Origin: a bacterium
GTDB lineage: Bacteria; Patescibacteriota; Microgenomatia; Daviesbacterales; UBA10151
Reading direction: 5' to 3'
Assembly (NCBI GenBank): GCA_021790255.1
Contig: JAJYIE010000006.1
Span: forward strand, 1-46,853
Length of the DNA: 46,853 nt
The notes under the pieces are model-generated. The model had not been told where the DNA came from and made no database searches. It saw only the letters and a program-made list of their open reading frames with translations. Of this stretch, positions 37,283 to 43,491 are shown piece after piece. The position numbers and the translations under genes were made by a program. Every line of letters begins with the position of its first letter. Within the stretch, counting starts at the first letter, position 1.

Positions 37283-38890
37283 ATGGAAAAAGTTTGGGAA
37301 ATTGCCCCGCGCCGCTTTGATGATCTGATAGAGCAGCTCCTGTATAACCGGGGTATCAAAACGGAGGGGGAAAGGGAAGAATTTTTTCATCCGCAGCTGG
37401 AAAATTTTGAGAAAGATTTTGATTTGCCGGGGGCAAAGAAAGCCATAAAGAGGATACATCAGGCGGCTAAGAGGAAAGAGTTGGTGGTAATTTTTGGTGA
37501 TTATGACGCAGACGGGCTTTGCGGAGCAGCAGTTTTGTATAACGGCTTAATGCGGGCCGGAGTGAAAGCGCTTCCATATATTCCTCATCGCGAGAAGGAG
37601 GGATACGGATTATCTAAAGCGGGTCTGGATTTTGCCCGGGAGCAAGGGGCTTCGCTTGTGATAACCGTTGACAATGGTATTGTGGCTGTGGAGCCTGCTA
37701 AGTATGCCCACTCACTAGGTTTGGATTTAATTATTACCGATCACCACACTCCCGCGCAGGAAAAACCGGAGGCACTCTCAATTATCCATTCCACTAAAAT
37801 GTCCGGAACGGCAGTGGCGTGGTGTTTAGTCCATCAGCTGGTGGGAGAGCAGGCATCTGAGGAGCTGCTGGATTTGGTAGCAGTTGCCACAATCGCTGAT
37901 TTATTGCCGCTTTTGGGAGTAAACCGGGCCTTGGCTGCTGAAGGTTTAAGAAGGTTAAACAAGACAAAAAGGCCGGGGTTTTTGGCCCTTTTTGCCGCAG
38001 CCCGTTTGCTGCCCGGCCAAATTGGTGCTTATGAAGTGGGGCATATATTAGGGCCGCGGCTTAATGCTTTGGGCAGGCTGGAACATGCCATGGACTCTCT
38101 TCGTCTTCTTTGTACTAAGAATAGGGAAAAAGCAGCCCGTTTGGCAGATGTTCTTTGCAGTGCTAATGACCAGAAGAAGAAACTGACCAGTGATGCGGCA
38201 GCGCAGGCTATGCAGCTTTTGGATACGGAATATAAAGACGGAATGGACAAGGTAAAAGTGCTGATTTTGCACTCCAAACAATGGATTCCGGGGATCATCG
38301 GCCTTTTGGCTGGGCGGCTGGCAGAGGAACATGGTTTACCGGCAGTGGTAATTTCCGAAGGCGAGGTTTTTTCCAAAGGCTCGGCCAGAACGGCCGGTGG
38401 GGTTAATATCGTTAAGGCTATCCGTGGCTGTTCCGGGTTGCTGGTGGATGTGGGAGGCCACCCGGCAGCAGCTGGCTTTACCCTGGAAAGCAGTAAAATT
38501 GCCCCGTTTAAAAAACAATTGGAGTTCATGATGCAGCAGGTGGAGGTGGACCGCCGGCGGAAGCTGCCGGTTGAGGCAATAGTACAGCTTTCGGAAATTA
38601 ACCTGAAGCTGGTGGAAAAGCTGCAGAAATTTGAGCCGACCGGAGCAGGTAACCCGCCGCCTGTCCTGGCAAGCTACAAAATGCGCCTGGGCGATCTGCG
38701 AACTGTGGGAGGAGGTAGTCATTTAAAATTTAAAGTTGAAGGATTTGAGGCTATCGGTTTTAATATGGGCGAAATGATTAACCTTATGAAAGAAGAGATG
38801 CTGGCTAATATTGCTTACCGCTTGGAAATAAACCGTTTTAATGGCCGGGAAACGTTGCAACTTAATGTTTTAGATATACAATTGGTGTAG
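37283..38890 (+). CDS. recJ: Single-stranded-DNA exonuclease RecJ
   Basis: RecJ degrades single-stranded DNA 5' to 3' in recombination and repair. The 535-residue product has the DHH-family motifs VVIFGDYDADGLCGAAVL (about 70-87), LVITVDNGI, and LIITDHHTPAQ (motif III). The DHHA1 domain has ARTAGGVNIVKAI and VDVGGHPAAAGFTL. A C-terminal OB-type segment follows. Length is normal for RecJ. It is followed after 1 nt by the RelA/SpoT-type gene. Confidence 0.95.
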   Translation: MEKVWEIAPRRFDDLIEQLLYNRGIKTEGEREEFFHPQLENFEKDFDLPGAKKAIKRIHQAAKRKELVVIFGDYDADGLCGAAVLYNGLMRAGVKALPYIPHREKEGYGLSKAGLDFAREQGASLVITVDNGIVAVEPAKYAHSLGLDLIITDHHTPAQEKPEALSIIHSTKMSGTAVAWCLVHQLVGEQASEELLDLVAVATIADLLPLLGVNRALAAEGLRRLNKTKRPGFLALFAAARLLPGQIGAYEVGHILGPRLNALGRLEHAMDSLRLLCTKNREKAARLADVLCSANDQKKKLTSDAAAQAMQLLDTEYKDGMDKVKVLILHSKQWIPGIIGLLAGRLAEEHGLPAVVISEGEVFSKGSARTAGGVNIVKAIRGCSGLLVDVGGHPAAAGFTLESSKIAPFKKQLEFMMQQVEVDRRRKLPVEAIVQLSEINLKLVEKLQKFEPTGAGNPPPVLASYKMRLGDLRTVGGGSHLKFKVEGFEAIGFNMGEMINLMKEEMLANIAYRLEINRFNGRETLQLNVLDIQLV

Positions 38891-38891
38891 G

Positions 38892-40322
38892 ATGAAAACA
38901 CCGCAAACACCCTTTCTGAAAAAGGCAACTGAGTTTGCCAATGATTCTCTTGTCGGTAAAAAACGGAATTCCGGAGAAAAGGTGGCTGACCACTGCCTGC
39001 GGGTTGCAGAAATTCTGGAAGATTTTAAGGTGACGGATCCGGAAGTGTTGGCCATGGCAATTTTACATCACAGCCTGCACGAAGGTGCGGCGAGTATAGA
39101 TGACATCCGCTGGGAGTTTGGTGAAGATATTGCTTCGATGATGGAGGCTTTTGAGAAGCTGCGCATAATTAAACCGCGAAAAGAGATAGGGGAAAAATTT
39201 ACGGAAAATCTGCGGTGGATGTTTTTGGTGTTGGCCAAGGATTTGCGGGTGGTGTTGGTAAAGCTGGCAGATATTTTAGACAACCTGACTACCCTGCAAT
39301 ATGTTAATGAGAAAAAAAGAGTTGAAGTATCCCGAAAAACCCTGGAAATTTTTGCTCCTCTGGCTGAGCGGTTAGGTATGGGGGAAATGAAAGGCACAAT
39401 GCAGGATCTGGCTTTTATGAACCTGTACCCGGGTGAGTACGAGTGGGTAAAAAAATATGCTCACAACCAGATTGATAAACTGACAAAGGCGATGCCCAAA
39501 GTTAAAGCGAAACTCAGCCAGGCTTTGGATGAGGCAGGAATCGAGGCAGAAATCCAAAGCAGGATCAAACATTATTATTCCCTTTATACTAAATTGCAGC
39601 GCCCTGAGGTAAACCGGGATATTAACAAAATTTATGACCTAATGGCGATGCGGGTGATTGTTAAGGAAAAAGAGGAGTGCTATCAGGTTTTAAGTATTGT
39701 AAACCAGCTCTTCAGGCCTCTGCCGGGTCATGTTTCAGATTTTATTGCCCATCCGAAGCCTAACGGCTATCAGTCTATCCATACTAAAGTTTTCGGACCG
39801 GCTAATCTGCCTTTTGAAATTCAAATCCGCACCCGGAAAATGCATGAGGCAGCAGAGTATGGAGTAGCTGCCCACTGGAACTACGCTGAGCAAAAAGAGA
39901 AGGGATTTTCTGATGAGGTAATCAGCCGGGGTTTTGCAGCCGGCGGAGAAAAACTTGAGTGGGTGAAAAGATTGGGGGAATGGCAGATGGAAGTCACGGA
40001 TAACAGGGAATTTTTAAAAAGCATTAAAACTGATTTTTTCGGCCAGCGGATTTTTTGCTTTACCCCCAAAGGAGATGTGAAAGATTTACCTGCCGGCGCA
40101 ACCCCGATCGATTTCGCCTATCATGTGCACACGAATTTGGGCAACCTAGTTACCGGAGCTAAGGTTAACGGTAAAGTAGTATCTCTTAACACTACGCTGC
40201 GAAACGGTGATGTAGTGGAACTGTTTTTATCCAAAGATCTCAGCAAAAAGCCCAGCCGCGACTGGCTGGAATTTGTCAAAACTTCCCTTGCCCGCCGCAA
40301 GATCAAGAAATTTTATACGTGA
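38892..40322 (+). CDS. RelA/SpoT-family (p)ppGpp protein, short, with altered catalytic motifs
   Basis: This 476-residue protein has an HD-hydrolase-like domain (1-170), synthetase domain (200-330) and TGS domain (about 385-450), but no C-terminal zinc-finger or ACT domains; full-length RSH proteins are about 700-750 residues. In the hydrolase region HDxxED is replaced by HHSLHE (59-64) and KLADRLHN by KLADILDN (124-131), so hydrolysis is probably lost. In the synthetase region the RXKD (bifunctional) or EXDD (RelA) motif reads HVSD (280-283), while HPKPNGYQSIHT and EIQIRTRKMHEAAEYGVAAHW are intact. A synthetase-only role is likely but not proven. It follows recJ directly. Confidence 0.9.
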   Translation: MKTPQTPFLKKATEFANDSLVGKKRNSGEKVADHCLRVAEILEDFKVTDPEVLAMAILHHSLHEGAASIDDIRWEFGEDIASMMEAFEKLRIIKPRKEIGEKFTENLRWMFLVLAKDLRVVLVKLADILDNLTTLQYVNEKKRVEVSRKTLEIFAPLAERLGMGEMKGTMQDLAFMNLYPGEYEWVKKYAHNQIDKLTKAMPKVKAKLSQALDEAGIEAEIQSRIKHYYSLYTKLQRPEVNRDINKIYDLMAMRVIVKEKEECYQVLSIVNQLFRPLPGHVSDFIAHPKPNGYQSIHTKVFGPANLPFEIQIRTRKMHEAAEYGVAAHWNYAEQKEKGFSDEVISRGFAAGGEKLEWVKRLGEWQMEVTDNREFLKSIKTDFFGQRIFCFTPKGDVKDLPAGATPIDFAYHVHTNLGNLVTGAKVNGKVVSLNTTLRNGDVVELFLSKDLSKKPSRDWLEFVKTSLARRKIKKFYT

Positions 40323-40323
40323 G

Positions 40324-40638
40324 TTAATATCCCCGGCTGAGGTGCCTGATTTCACTGCGGTTTTCCCGGTAAGGTTTAGTTAAAGTTTTTAATAGATCCA
40401 ACAAGGCGCTTTTCTGAGATATATAATCAGGGTCCTGTTCTGAGATATCCCTCTTTCTTTCTCCAGGGTATTGTTCATTTAGGGCAGCCAGTGACTGCCG
40501 ACAGACAGTGATATCAGCCCTGATGGCACTATTAATCGCCCCAAGTTTGCTAATCTCTATTTTAGTGTTTCTGGTAATAATTTTCGCTTCAACGCTGATG
40601 ATAAACACCTCCTTTCGTATAGGTTTAACTTTTACCAT
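40324..40638 (-). CDS. Small charged protein of unknown function, start codon ambiguous
   Basis: This protein has up to 104 residues, rich in K, R, E and I, with no membrane segment or known motif. Two starts are possible. ATG 40638 overlaps the end of the upstream small frame, which suggests coupling. However, a perfect Shine-Dalgarno AAAGGAGGTG lies further in (40606-40615) and points to the ATC codons at 40602 or 40599, with no ATG, GTG or TTG at that spacing. Either the Shine-Dalgarno match is chance or translation starts at a rare AUC. The gene belongs to the small-gene island and converges with the RelA/SpoT-type gene. Confidence 0.55.
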   Translation of the reverse strand: MVKVKPIRKEVFIISVEAKIITRNTKIEISKLGAINSAIRADITVCRQSLAALNEQYPGERKRDISEQDPDYISQKSALLDLLKTLTKPYRENRSEIRHLSRGY

Positions 40639-40805
40639 CCGAAAGCATTTAGCCGTGAATCTTCCTGCTGGCCGATATGAACCAAAGCTACCCTTTCCAG
40701 CAGGGGTCTTTTGACATGGTACTCATAACTGGCTGGTTCTGTCAGGACAGCGTGCTCATTACATTCATTCGGAAACCAGTTTCTAACCAAAGCCTGCAAT
40801 AACAA
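40632..40805 (-). CDS. Possible small gene, 57 codons from a TTG start
   Basis: The frame is open from 40848 and reads QALVRNWFPNECNEHAVLTE, then PASYEYHVKRPLLERVALVH, ending NAFGW, a balanced protein-like composition. There is no ATG or GTG; TTG 40805 is the first usual start and has only a G-rich weak ribosome site. An ATG at 40847 lies in another frame and stops early, so a frameshift near the start is possible. It would overlap the ATG 40638 of the next gene with its last codons. No family recognised. Confidence 0.35.
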   Translation of the reverse strand: MLLQALVRNWFPNECNEHAVLTEPASYEYHVKRPLLERVALVHIGQQEDSRLNAFGW

Positions 40806-40899
40806 GACTTCCCCCGCACTAAGCTGCCTGGTATCTGCCGGCTCATGTTTTTATGTTTCAACAGTCAGGTTTATCGCCTCATTTCAGTAAATTTAACTC

Positions 40900-40925
40900 A
40901 TCCCGGCTGGACAACCAGCCGGGAT
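40900..40925. terminator. Strong perfect hairpin behind the 40945-41214 gene
   Basis: ATCCCGGCTGG (40900-40910), loop ACAA, CCAGCCGGGAT (40915-40925): an 11-bp perfect stem. It stands 20 nt behind the stop of the leftward gene ending at 40945. The tail on that strand is AT-rich (GAGTTAAATTTAC) rather than a pure U-run. The remaining 40639-40899 sequence holds only the possible 57-codon frame. Confidence 0.6.
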
Positions 40926-40944
40926 ATGCTTTTGGATTGAGAAA

Positions 40945-41214
40945 TTACCCAGCCCGGTAGATAGCTACGCCAGGCTGTTTTGTTTTTAGTACAAAATGAT
41001 GGTTAGAGCTTTCTCCTCTGGCTATGCGGACATCCCGCTGCTCCGGTACGCTAACACTTATAGCGTCTCCTTCGGTAGTTGGCGTATGAGAAGGTCTTTC
41101 ATCTACCCCAAACCTGTTACTTTTCCATCTTAATTCAGCTGAAAGAGGATCAAACATTCTGGCCATTTCAGCATCATTCGTCCGACCTTCTTGTTCTGTG
41201 TGTCTTTCATTCAT
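40945..41214 (-). CDS. Small hydrophilic protein, family unknown
   Basis: From ATG 41214 the product is 89 residues: MNERHTEQEGRTNDAEMARM at the start and HHFVLKTKQPGVAIYRAG at the end. No membrane segment or known motif is seen. ATG 41214 has a Shine-Dalgarno AAAGGGGGTGA six nt upstream; the in-frame ATG at 41223 lies inside that ribosome site. An intrinsic terminator (41247-41269) stands just before the gene on the same strand, so it is either expressed by read-through or controlled by attenuation. Confidence 0.7.
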   Translation of the reverse strand: MNERHTEQEGRTNDAEMARMFDPLSAELRWKSNRFGVDERPSHTPTTEGDAISVSVPEQRDVRIARGESSNHHFVLKTKQPGVAIYRAG

Positions 41215-41246
41215 TGTTATCACCCCCTTTCATTTTTGTGTACAAA

Positions 41247-41269
41247 AAACCTCCCTTGTGGGGAGGTTT
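41247..41269 (-). terminator. Intrinsic terminator or attenuator on the minus strand
   Basis: AAACCTCCC (41247-41255) pairs with GGGAGGTTT (41261-41269). Read on the minus strand the 9-bp stem runs into TTTTTTG, a classic rho-independent terminator. It lies between a 31-codon gene and the 89-residue gene transcribed in the same direction. A second hairpin, TTTTAGGT/ACCTAAAA (41277-41304), overlaps the stop of the 31-codon gene. Confidence 0.75.
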
Positions 41270-41294
41270 CCTCTTCTTTTAGGTTTTTAATTTT

Positions 41295-41390
41295 TTACCT
41301 AAAAGACCTCCCCGATTTGACTCCAATAAGAAGGAGTCCTCCGAGGAGGCTGATAATAATAACCAAAACCGGCGAAACTGATAAATTCAT
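41295..41390 (-). CDS. 31-residue single-pass membrane peptide
   Basis: A 32-codon frame encodes MNLSVSPVLVIIISLLGG followed by LLLIGVKSGRSFR: one hydrophobic helix and a basic C-terminal end, as in many small bacterial membrane proteins. It has a near-consensus promoter (TTGACA-18-TAAAAT), whose -10 box ends 9 nt before the ATG, and an intrinsic terminator after the stop, so it looks like a complete independent unit. There is no Shine-Dalgarno, consistent with leaderless translation. Function unknown; such peptides often regulate larger membrane complexes or act as toxins (family-level knowledge, not evidence for this one). Confidence 0.6.
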   Translation of the reverse strand: MNLSVSPVLVIIISLLGGLLLIGVKSGRSFR

Positions 41391-41399
41391 GTTTTTAAG

Positions 41400-41429
41400 A
41401 TTTTAATCCACTATTGCCAGGCTTGTCAA
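41400..41429 (-). promoter_or_regulatory. Near-consensus promoter of the 31-residue peptide gene
   Basis: Read on the minus strand: TTGACA (41424-41429), an 18-nt spacer, TAAAAT (41400-41405), then 9 nt to ATG 41390. Confidence 0.7.
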
Positions 41430-41499
41430 GTTGTAGTAAGATTTAAAAAACCAATGATGATTTTCCGGACTAGTTTAACAAGCTTTTACTATTACTTTA

Positions 41500-41587
41500 C
41501 CTCCATAAAACGGGAGGCCTTTTGACGTAGGTTAAAAATACAGTCAAAAGAAAGTAAACAGCCTCCCAGAAATGGGAGGTATTTTTT
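41500..41587 (+). promoter_or_regulatory. Leader with CCTCC/GGAGG hairpins before the small plus-strand genes
   Basis: CCTCC (41500-41504) can pair with GGAGG (41513-41517). CCTCCC (41562-41567) pairs with GGGAGG (41574-41579), followed by TATTTTTT, an intrinsic terminator on the plus strand. The real Shine-Dalgarno AAGGAGGTG of the next gene (near 41600-41608) could also pair with either CCTCC. I found no convincing plus-strand promoter in 41430-41500. Confidence 0.5.
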
Positions 41588-41614
41588 GGAAATTTTTTAA
41601 GGAGGTGATGACAA

Positions 41615-41797
41615 GTGGGTGCACAAAGAGTGAAGGAGATGGAACCGGCGATTCCCTTAGATCGGGTGAGTTTAAAGAACAGCAAGCTTAAGCAACCCGG
41701 TGAAGATATTAAAGATGATCTGATCTGGAAATCTTTATTGGTTGAAACAACCAGGCCGAAAATGATCAGAGCCAGGCGCGGATTGCGGGCAAGATGA
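41615..41797 (+). CDS. 60-residue basic protein, family unknown
   Basis: GTG 41615 is preceded by a very strong Shine-Dalgarno, AAGGAGGTG, at 7-nt spacing. The product MGAQRVKEMEPAIPLDRVSL...MIRARRGLRAR is basic at the C-terminus and has no membrane helix or known motif. It lies behind the hairpin leader at 41500-41587. The next small gene follows after 53 nt with the same kind of ribosome site, so both are probably expressed together. Confidence 0.65.
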   Translation: MGAQRVKEMEPAIPLDRVSLKNSKLKQPGEDIKDDLIWKSLLVETTRPKMIRARRGLRAR

Positions 41798-41850
41798 TGA
41801 TCAAGAAGCTAATTGTTTAAGCATACCAAAGAAAGAAGGAGGTGAATTTT

Positions 41851-42111
41851 ATGAGCGAAACAGAACCAGTAACTTTGGAGTTAATTTCCATGCCTGCTGT
41901 AGCTAAAGCGGCGCTTAAAGAGGTCAGGCGAAGCCGGGGAAGAAAGCGCATTTTTCCATGTCAGGAAGGAGGTGGCTGCTTGGAACTTAACATTAATAAC
42001 TTTTGCGCAGCTAATAAGTGTGCGTATTCGGCGCTAGATAAGGCATTGGTATGTCATCTGCGGGGAGGAGTTGTCAGAATGGTGGCCTTGCCGCGGCAGG
42101 CGGTTAGGTAG
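41851..42111 (+). CDS. 86-residue cysteine-containing protein, possible metal binder
   Basis: ATG 41851 has the Shine-Dalgarno AAGGAGGTGA five nt upstream; the frame extends to GTG 41842, but that overlaps the ribosome site. The product has five cysteines (C37, C43, C52, C57, C68) in RIFPCQEGGGCLELN, NNFCAANKCAY and ALVCHL, which could form a small metal site. A basic helix with RRSRGRKR precedes them. No family recognised. The stop is 8 nt before the aspS -35 box. Confidence 0.65.
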   Translation: MSETEPVTLELISMPAVAKAALKEVRRSRGRKRIFPCQEGGGCLELNINNFCAANKCAYSALDKALVCHLRGGVVRMVALPRQAVR

Positions 42112-42119
42112 GTTTAGTA

Positions 42120-42148
42120 TTGTCAAGGATATATGAAGTTGCTATGAT
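42120..42148 (+). promoter_or_regulatory. aspS promoter, predicted leaderless transcript
   Basis: TTGTCA (42120-42125), a 17-nt spacer and TATGAT (42143-42148) lie 8 nt before ATG 42157, with no Shine-Dalgarno. Confidence 0.7.
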
Positions 42149-42156
42149 CAACGCGT

Positions 42157-43491
42157 ATGGAAAGAACGCTGATCGTAGACTGTAACGATAAAATTGACCA
42201 GGCAGTTAAAATCTGCGGTTGGGTGCAGGTACGCCGCGACCACGGAAAGATTGTTTTTCTGGATATTTCAGACCGCTCCGGTGTTCTTCAGGTGGTGGCA
42301 GCCGGGGAGCAGGCAGGGGATTTAAATGCCCAAGATGTGGTTTGTATCGAAGGTAAAGTTGAGAAACGCCCGGAAAATCTGGTTAACCCCAATCTGTCCA
42401 CTGGCACCATTGAACTTCAGGCCGGCAAAATTGAGGTGCTGTCAAAGGCTGCAGAACTTCCCTTTGACATGGGGGCCAAGGAGTTGAACCTGCAACTACC
42501 GACCCTTCTGGATTATCGTTCTTTAACCCTTCGCTACCCTAAAGTTAGGGAAATTTTTCGGGTGCAATCAGTATTGATGGAAGCTTTCCGTCAGGCTGCG
42601 ATCAACTTGGGCTGCGTCGAGATTTTTATTCCGACCATTGTTGCTGCAGCGACCGAAGGCGGTGCAGAAGTTTTTCCGGTTGATTACTACGGTCACAAAG
42701 TCTATATGTCCCAAAGCCCCCAGCTGTATAAACAGATGCTCGTCCCGGTTTTTGAAAGAGTTTTTACTATTGCCCTCGCCTACAGGGCGGAGCCATCAGT
42801 TACAACCCGGCATTTGTCCGAGTCTACCCAGATGGATTGCGAACTGGGCTTTGTGACATTTACCGAGCTAATGGATTACCTGGAAGAAGTTGCTACCCGA
42901 ATGCTTCAGGCTGTCGAGGAAAAATGTCCTGAGTCCTTGAAAGTTTTCGGAGTGGAGCCGGTTGCGTTCGGAAAAATACCCCGGCTGACATTGCGGGAAG
43001 CTCAGGAGATAATTTTTAAAGAAACCGGGCGGGATAACCGGGCCGAAAAAGACTTAGCTCCTCAGGATGAAATTGATATTTGTAAATGGGCTCTCAAAAA
43101 CCATAACAGTGATTTAGTGACAATTACCCATTTCCCAACTACTAAACGGGCTTTTTATACCATGCCCGACCCGGACAACCCGGAATACAGCCTAAGTTAT
43201 GATCTTTTATTCAGGGGAACTGAAATGTTAAGCGGCAGTCAAAGAATTAGTGATTATGAGCAACTGGTTCAGGTAATTAAAGATCGGGGAATGGACCCGA
43301 AAAACTTTGAGATGTATCTTTTGGCCTTTAAATATGGCATGCCGCCGGAGGGGGGATTTTCCTTTGGTCTCGAGAGGCTAACCATGAATGTTTTGAAGTT
43401 GTCAAACATCCGCGAAGCTTCACTTTTCCCCCGGGATATGGAGAGAGTTGACATCAGGCTTTCCACCTTGGGGAAAGACAAAGGACAGTAA
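42157..43491 (+). CDS. aspS: Aspartyl-tRNA synthetase, archaeal/eukaryotic type
   Basis: This enzyme charges tRNA with aspartate. The 444-residue length and the absence of the bacterial GAD insertion (bacterial AspRS is about 590 residues) place it in the archaeal-type branch. Features are an N-terminal OB anticodon-binding domain with GWVQVRRDHGKIVFLDISDR (about 21-40), motif 2 region with YMSQSPQLYKQML and AYRAEPSVTTRHLSES, and motif 3 with GGFSFGLERLTMNVL. Many such bacterial enzymes are non-discriminating and also charge tRNA-Asn, which then needs the GatCAB amidotransferase (family knowledge). AsnRS is a less likely alternative. Confidence 0.88.
   Translation: MERTLIVDCNDKIDQAVKICGWVQVRRDHGKIVFLDISDRSGVLQVVAAGEQAGDLNAQDVVCIEGKVEKRPENLVNPNLSTGTIELQAGKIEVLSKAAELPFDMGAKELNLQLPTLLDYRSLTLRYPKVREIFRVQSVLMEAFRQAAINLGCVEIFIPTIVAAATEGGAEVFPVDYYGHKVYMSQSPQLYKQMLVPVFERVFTIALAYRAEPSVTTRHLSESTQMDCELGFVTFTELMDYLEEVATRMLQAVEEKCPESLKVFGVEPVAFGKIPRLTLREAQEIIFKETGRDNRAEKDLAPQDEIDICKWALKNHNSDLVTITHFPTTKRAFYTMPDPDNPEYSLSYDLLFRGTEMLSGSQRISDYEQLVQVIKDRGMDPKNFEMYLLAFKYGMPPEGGFSFGLERLTMNVLKLSNIREASLFPRDMERVDIRLSTLGKDKGQ

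What the first reader, a model, noticed from the sequence alone, without database searches (positions are those of the whole stretch)
39066..39741. RelA/SpoT protein with a degenerate hydrolase site and a new variant of the RXKD/EXDD motif
HHSLHE replaces the HDxxED metal/catalytic motif, and KLADILDN replaces KLADRLHN, so the hydrolase is probably dead. The synthetase motif that separates bifunctional enzymes (RXKD) from RelA (EXDD) reads HVSD. The C-terminal regulatory domains are absent after TGS. If it is the only RSH in the genome, alarmone removal would need another enzyme.
Basis: partly seen in the sequence, partly recalled or inferred. Interest (0 to 1): 0.52.

Follow-up and report, generated by a model that had tools for sequence, protein, structure and literature searches.

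The report
Alarmone synthase with remodelled hydrolase pocket
A small-genome bacterium carries a single stress-alarmone enzyme whose making half looks intact while its destroying half has had key catalytic residues swapped, a change fixed in its close relatives, so it probably makes the signal but destroys it poorly or not at all.

Summary
The gene is real: window 38892-40322 (+), 476 aa, HD_4 + RelA_SpoT + TGS, the only RSH found in its 941-kb, 91.6%-complete genome. HHSLHE and KLADILDN are present as reported: D78 is His, E81 His, R145 Ile, H147 Asp (RelSeq numbering). But R44, H53, H77, D144, N148 and T151 are kept, so the pocket is not simply destroyed. D78-to-His is shared by all 6 RSHs of one clade in the window's family and by 0 of 154 readable others. 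Branch lengths show a burst of change in the hydrolase domain on that clade's stem (hydrolase/synthetase 2.15, bootstrap 1.28-4.54), then ordinary constraint (1.12; whole tree 1.07): remodelled once and maintained, not decaying. Best reading: a synthetase-only (or synthetase-dominant) long RSH whose hydrolase fold is kept for alarmone/metal binding and regulation. A still-active, altered hydrolase is not excluded. No other HD_4 hydrolase or GppA was found; six Nudix proteins could clear the alarmone. New variant of a known kind, moderate interest.

The parts
38892..40322 (+). RSH gene, 476 aa (HD_4 - RelA_SpoT - TGS), ATG one base after the recJ stop codon
38925..39380 (+). HD_4 (alarmone hydrolase) domain with altered catalytic site
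38964..38993 (+). R25..H34 (RNSGEKVADH): guanine loop R44/S46/G47 and metal ligand H53 equivalents, kept
39066..39083 (+). H59-E64, HHSLHE in place of HDxxED: H77 kept, D78 to His, E81 to His, D82 to Glu
39261..39284 (+). K124-N131, KLADILDN: D144 and N148 kept, R145 to Ile, H147 to Asp
39558..39896 (+). RelA_SpoT (synthetase) domain, canonical motifs present (R-x-KHYYSLY, YDL, NGYQSIHT, EIQIRT)
39729..39740 (+). HVSD at the RXKD/EXDD position
40050..40226 (+). TGS domain; H413 aligns with E. coli RelA H432 (tRNA CCA sensing); the protein ends 31 residues after this domain
37283..38890 (+). recJ, upstream neighbour with conserved synteny
42157..43491 (+). class II (D/K/N) aminoacyl-tRNA synthetase, next large gene downstream, also near RSH in relatives

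Best explanation
A vertically inherited long RSH of a Patescibacteria family that has become synthetase-only, or nearly so. The synthetase makes (p)ppGpp from ATP and GDP/GTP. In the hydrolase domain the residues that bind the resting metal (H53, H77, D144) and the guanine (R44, S46, N148, T151) stay, but the residue that must swing onto the metal (D78) is His and the acid E81 is gone, so the pocket can plausibly still bind metal and alarmone without turning it over. The domain is then kept as a ligand-sensing or structural switch for the synthetase, as the pseudo-hydrolase of E. coli RelA is, while TGS (with its tRNA-sensing His) is the remaining sensor. Shown: residues, clade-wide fixation, stem burst, ordinary constraint since, no other HD_4 protein found. 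Inferred: loss of hydrolysis, ligand binding, regulation, tRNA sensing, and removal of alarmone by other enzymes such as Nudix proteins.
For: Motif mapping. D78-to-His in 6 of 6 clade rows, 0 of 154 readable others. Monophyly of the six, SH-aLRT 100. Of 10 sites fixed differently from the 47-row sister group, 8 lie in residues 1-190 (binomial p 0.012). Eight kept pocket residues all invariant (68 of 152 HD columns are; p 0.0013; the eight were chosen by me). HD/SYN branch length 2.15 on the stem, 1.12 inside the clade, 1.07 over the tree; bootstrap 1.28-4.54, stem above inner in 97 of 100; without the motif columns still 2.33 against 1.30 (computed). AF2 model keeps the HD helices and matches S. 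aureus Rel, Z 36.0, 1.7 A over 312 residues. R44Q and D78A abolish RelSeq hydrolysis; resting Mn is held by H53, H77, D144 (PMC13299517, section read). The RelA pseudo-hydrolase regulates synthesis (PMC8012599, passages).
Against: No activity is measured for any member. His can ligate metal and an acid is kept at D82 (E in 3, D in 3), so some hydrolysis is possible. No alternative alarmone-degrading enzyme is demonstrated; a synthetase with no hydrolase would be expected to be toxic. Truncation after TGS leaves no ZFD/RRM for known ribosomal activation. The rate evidence rests on six sequences.
Confidence: 0.58

Rival explanations
1. The hydrolase still works, with an altered site: His at D78 (and perhaps Asp at H147) supports the metal in a changed geometry, possibly with another metal or another substrate (for example ppApp, pGpp or NADPH, as small alarmone hydrolases vary).
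For: All resting metal ligands and guanine contacts invariant; ordinary constraint within the clade; acid kept at D82; no other HD_4 protein in 5 of the 6 genomes; substrate breadth of SAHs in PMC9765508 (passages).
Against: D78A abolishes RelSeq hydrolysis; E81, kept in 64 of 74 readable class rows, is H/S/L here.
Confidence: 0.25
2. The hydrolase is dead and the domain is merely a folded support for the synthetase, without ligand binding.
For: Atkinson et al. 2011 suggest a structural role for the RelA HD domain (PMC3153485, passages); structural helices intact.
Against: Polar pocket residues with no evident structural role stay invariant in 6 of 6, and the domain shows no excess rate inside the clade, unlike family f27 (2.30).
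Confidence: 0.14
3. The gene is on its way out: a decaying relic in a lineage that mostly lacks RSH.
For: Only 7 of 45 family genomes have a long RSH, 6 of this type; recJ is followed directly by the tRNA synthetase without RSH in a single-contig, 99% complete relative (G003).
Against: Open frames, intact synthetase motifs, conserved position beside recJ, HD/SYN ratio 1.00-1.12.
Confidence: 0.03

Closest known systems
RelA[hS] of beta/gamma-proteobacteria (E. coli RelA)
   Same: Long RSH with intact-looking synthetase and altered hydrolase site; HD domain kept
   Different: RelA lost the pocket residues broadly (alignment), has EXDD and the full C-terminal half, and coexists with SpoT; here most pocket residues stay, no EXDD, no C-terminal half, no second RSH found
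Bifunctional Rel[HS] (RelSeq, B. subtilis Rel)
   Same: Fold, synthetase motifs, metal ligands H53/H77/D144, guanine contacts, TGS
   Different: D78, E81, R145, H147 changed; RXKD changed; almost nothing after TGS
RshC (truncated after TGS) and algal Rsh1/4 with degrading HD (PMC3153485, passages)
   Same: Precedents for truncation after TGS and for HD degradation
   Different: RshC is a second copy; the plastid proteins belong to plant and algal groups
Other short RSHs of the same class of Patescibacteria
   Same: Same architecture of about 500 aa; G-x-(S/R)-D in 47 of 76
   Different: 67 of 74 readable rows keep D78, 7 have Glu and none has His

Membership tests
Long RSH (RelA/SpoT homologue) | HD_4, RelA_SpoT and TGS domains in order | tested here: met
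   Pfam 5.7e-32, 1.3e-38, 2.7e-22; TIGR00691 494.5 bits, just under its cut-off 499.2
Long RSH (RelA/SpoT homologue) | Fold of solved Rel enzymes | tested here: met
   AF2 model against 7oiw_A Z 36.0
Bifunctional Rel[HS] | HDxxED in the hydrolase domain | tested here: not met
   HHSLHE
Bifunctional Rel[HS] | RXKD in the synthetase domain | tested here: not met
   HVSD
Bifunctional Rel[HS] | Measured hydrolysis and synthesis | not testable with these tools
   needs an assay
Bifunctional Rel[HS] | Helical, ZFD/CC and ACT/RRM domains after TGS | tested here: not met
   protein ends at 476; TGS ends at 445
RelA[hS] | EXDD motif | tested here: not met
   HVSD
RelA[hS] | Hydrolase site catalytically inactive | tested here: inconclusive
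   D78 and E81 lost, other pocket residues kept; no assay
RelA[hS] | Coexists with SpoT | tested here: not met
   one RelA_SpoT match in the genome, which is 91.6% complete
Small alarmone synthetase | No hydrolase domain | tested here: not met
   HD_4 present

The most novel reading that the evidence does not exclude
A new state of the RSH hydrolase pocket: an HH-type site, remodelled once at the base of a Patescibacteria clade and since conserved, that binds metal and alarmone and either senses it allosterically to set the synthetase, or performs a changed reaction. This would be an RSH that reads its own product through a converted active site, without ribosome-docking domains.
Probability: 0.35. 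Interest if true: 0.62.

Novelty: new variant of a known kind. Interest (0 to 1): 0.42.

Why it matters
It offers a natural, conserved test of which hydrolase residues RSHs need, and of what a kept but altered hydrolase pocket does for the synthetase. It also sharpens the question of how minimal bacteria with one RSH and no ribosome-docking domains control and remove the alarmone. My searches of the open-access library listed no paper on RSHs of Patescibacteria (listings only seen).

Tried and rejected
HVSD as a new motif: rejected as special, class-wide. Truncated C-terminus as special: rejected, class-wide. KLADILDN as proof of a dead site: rejected, since D144 and N148 stay; Asp at the H147 position also occurs in 2 of 75 readable class rows (L118, L119) and in the small HD_4 protein of G025 (L017).

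A backup small alarmone hydrolase: PF13328 finds only the RSH itself in G000; the same for 4 of the other 5 genomes of the clade, while G016 has a second, weak one. GppA/Ppx: none in G000. Nudix: six matches in G000, none tied to alarmones by me; a signature script printed three of the six ORFs and they were not studied further.

Ongoing decay: tested and not supported. Association of altered sites elsewhere in the class with a second HD_4 protein: compared by eye, no clear link, no statistic computed. AF2 coordinates could not be read, so no metal-site geometry was measured. Rfam over the whole window: no match. No diverse RelA set was available as a positive control for decay; families f27 (inner HD/SYN 2.30) and f25 (1.71) were the only in-set groups with a fast HD domain, and f3 gave 1.38. 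The lineage within Patescibacteria was not identified by name: placement rests on the RSH tree alone.

Rows dropped: of 162 loci one (L188) gave no hit; with the window 162 rows, of which one was too short for the tree (161 rows). From I fetched the strong long-RSH matches and left out the weaker PF04607 matches (mostly about 360-aa and 600-aa frames). Some clade rows come from a truncated contig (G001, 347 aa) and were left out of the pairwise test.

Full report
What is there. Window 38892-40322 (+) encodes a 476-aa RelA/SpoT homologue with HD_4 (residues 12-163), RelA_SpoT (223-335) and TGS (387-445) domains; NCBIfam's spoT_relA model scores 494.5 bits, just below its cut-off of 499.2. Its ATG lies one base after the recJ stop codon. 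The genome G000 (941,059 bases, 45 contigs, 91.62% complete) has one RelA_SpoT match, this one.

The motifs. The alignment to B. subtilis Rel (6yxa) maps the canonical residues, in RelSeq numbering (recalled, and consistent with the residues named in PMC13299517), as: R44=R25, S46=S27, H53=H34, H77=H59, D78=H60, E81=H63, D82=E64, D144=D127, R145=I128, H147=D130, N148=N131, T151=T134. In RelSeq the resting Mn is held by H53, H77 and D144; R44, S46, N148 and T151 contact the guanine; D78 is released from a salt bridge with R44 and approaches the metal when substrate binds; R44Q and D78A abolish hydrolysis (PMC13299517, section 2.4.1 read in full). So here the resting metal site and guanine contacts are present and the moving catalytic acid is His.

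Relatives. In the window's family, 45 genomes are held; PF13328 matches 11, and the protein query finds 6 close homologues including the window's own (the others 61-70% identical), one long RSH at 44% (G059) and one weak small match (G025). All six close ones read LHHxxxx(G/S) and KLADIxDNLxTL. G059's protein is canonical and groups with Moranbacteria rows; it sits on an 8,156-base contig, so transfer or contamination. I aligned 162 rows: these 6, 76 others of the class and 80 named loci. D78 is His in 6 of 6; elsewhere it is D in 67 and E in 7 of 74 readable class rows, and D in 79 and E in 1 of 80 named rows. In the six, E81 is H in 3, S in 2, L in 1; D82 is E in 3 and D in 3.

Tree and rates. 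On a 161-row tree built without the motif columns the six form one clade (SH-aLRT 100), sister to a 47-row group of the class (92 for the join), within a clade otherwise made of Patescibacteria rows (96). Ten sites are fixed in the six and differ from a residue held by at least 75% of the sister rows; 8 of these lie in residues 1-190, binomial p 0.012. With topology fixed, the stem of the clade is 0.746 for the HD domain and 0.347 for the synthetase (2.15), inside the clade the ratio is 1.12 and over the whole tree 1.07. In 100 column bootstraps the stem ratio was 1.28-4.54 and exceeded the inner ratio in 97. Leaving out the motif columns gives 0.807 against 0.347 on the stem, 2.134 against 1.645 inside and 56.99 against 45.05 over the tree. 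Pairwise HD/SYN distance in the clade is 1.00 (0.72-1.41; five full-length rows), while family f27 gives 1.54 (1.10-2.15). The pattern is one episode of change followed by ordinary constraint, which argues against decay and for a kept role. It rests on six sequences.

Not specific to this protein. At the RXKD/EXDD position 47 of 76 other class rows read G-x-S-D or G-x-R-D, and 1 reads RXKD; the six read PISD (2), HVSD, PFSD, AVSD, SVRD. All 76 end within 22 residues of the query's end (median 3). Changes at seven core hydrolase residues occur in 26 of 160 scored rows (the six included), needing at least 12 changes on the tree; changes at the four metal ligands in 20 rows (the six included), at least 8 changes. 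Some of these (E81D, D78E) may be harmless.

Context. The order cca (-), recJ, RSH, class II D/K/N tRNA synthetase is kept in G017 and G007, and as far as the contigs reach in G024 and G001; in G016 the neighbours are partly rearranged. In RSH-less relatives recJ and cca mostly stay together, and in G003 (one contig, 99% complete) recJ is followed directly by the tRNA synthetase. So the gene is inherited in place and its absence elsewhere is real in at least that genome.

Structure. AF2 on a 44-row alignment gives mean pLDDT 85.4, with block means of 89-98 from residue 11 to 90 and low confidence around 91-110 and 330-390. It matches S. aureus Rel (7oiw_A) at Z 36.0, 1.7 A over 312 residues, and human Mesh1 (5vxa_A) at Z 19.3 for the HD part.

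How it likely works. Synthetase motifs are intact. TGS H413 aligns with E. coli RelA H432, the residue needed for activation by the tRNA 3' CCA (PMC7058999, passages), so tRNA sensing is possible, but the ZFD and RRM domains that bind the ribosome are absent. RRM deletion makes Rel and RelA toxic by overproduction (same passages), so such a short RSH needs another brake; a ligand-binding but non-hydrolysing HD pocket could be one, as the RelA pseudo-hydrolase controls synthesis (PMC8012599, passages). This step is inference. Removal of the alarmone would fall to other enzymes: no GppA, no second HD_4, six Nudix proteins. About 8% of the genome may be missing, so absences are provisional.

Novelty. 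Each ingredient has precedent: hydrolase-dead RelA, RshC truncated after TGS, algal RSHs with degrading HD domains (PMC3153485, passages). The invariant His at D78 with the rest of the pocket kept, fixed in a clade, I have not seen described; my paper searches cover open-access text only, and for most papers I saw only the listing.

Noticed in passing
L118, L119, L135, L153, L165, L173, L176, L178, L179, L183, L187, L013, L156: Other RSHs of the class also have altered hydrolase metal-ligand residues (D78E, D144E/N), some with N148 changed too; at least 8 changes at metal ligands on the tree, the window's clade included: repeated alteration of the hydrolase in short Patescibacteria RSHs.
   Followed up: partly
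L196 (G025:C20:15000-29000): A divergent RelA_SpoT match in an 845-aa frame (C20:20510-20878 +) lies near a 222-aa HD_4 protein (C20:22516-22788 -), in a genome without a long RSH match; could be a toxin-antitoxin-like alarmone pair.
   Followed up: no
G309:C12, G219:C4, G125:C1, G337:C22, G331:C6 and others: About 600-aa frames with an HD_4 match and, in most, only a weak RelA_SpoT match, in several genomes that also have the 500-aa RSH; possible division of labour.
   Followed up: no
L190 (G059:C45): The only canonical long RSH in the family groups with Moranbacteria rows: transfer or contamination.
   Followed up: partly
window 40323-42156: 1.8-kb stretch between RSH and the tRNA synthetase without a large ORF; short ORFs (one, 41842-42111, with no Pfam match) follow strong Shine-Dalgarno-like sequences; no Rfam match.
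   Followed up: partly
L224 (G058), L229 (G005): One in-frame TAG inside recJ in two relatives, perhaps assembly errors.
   Followed up: no
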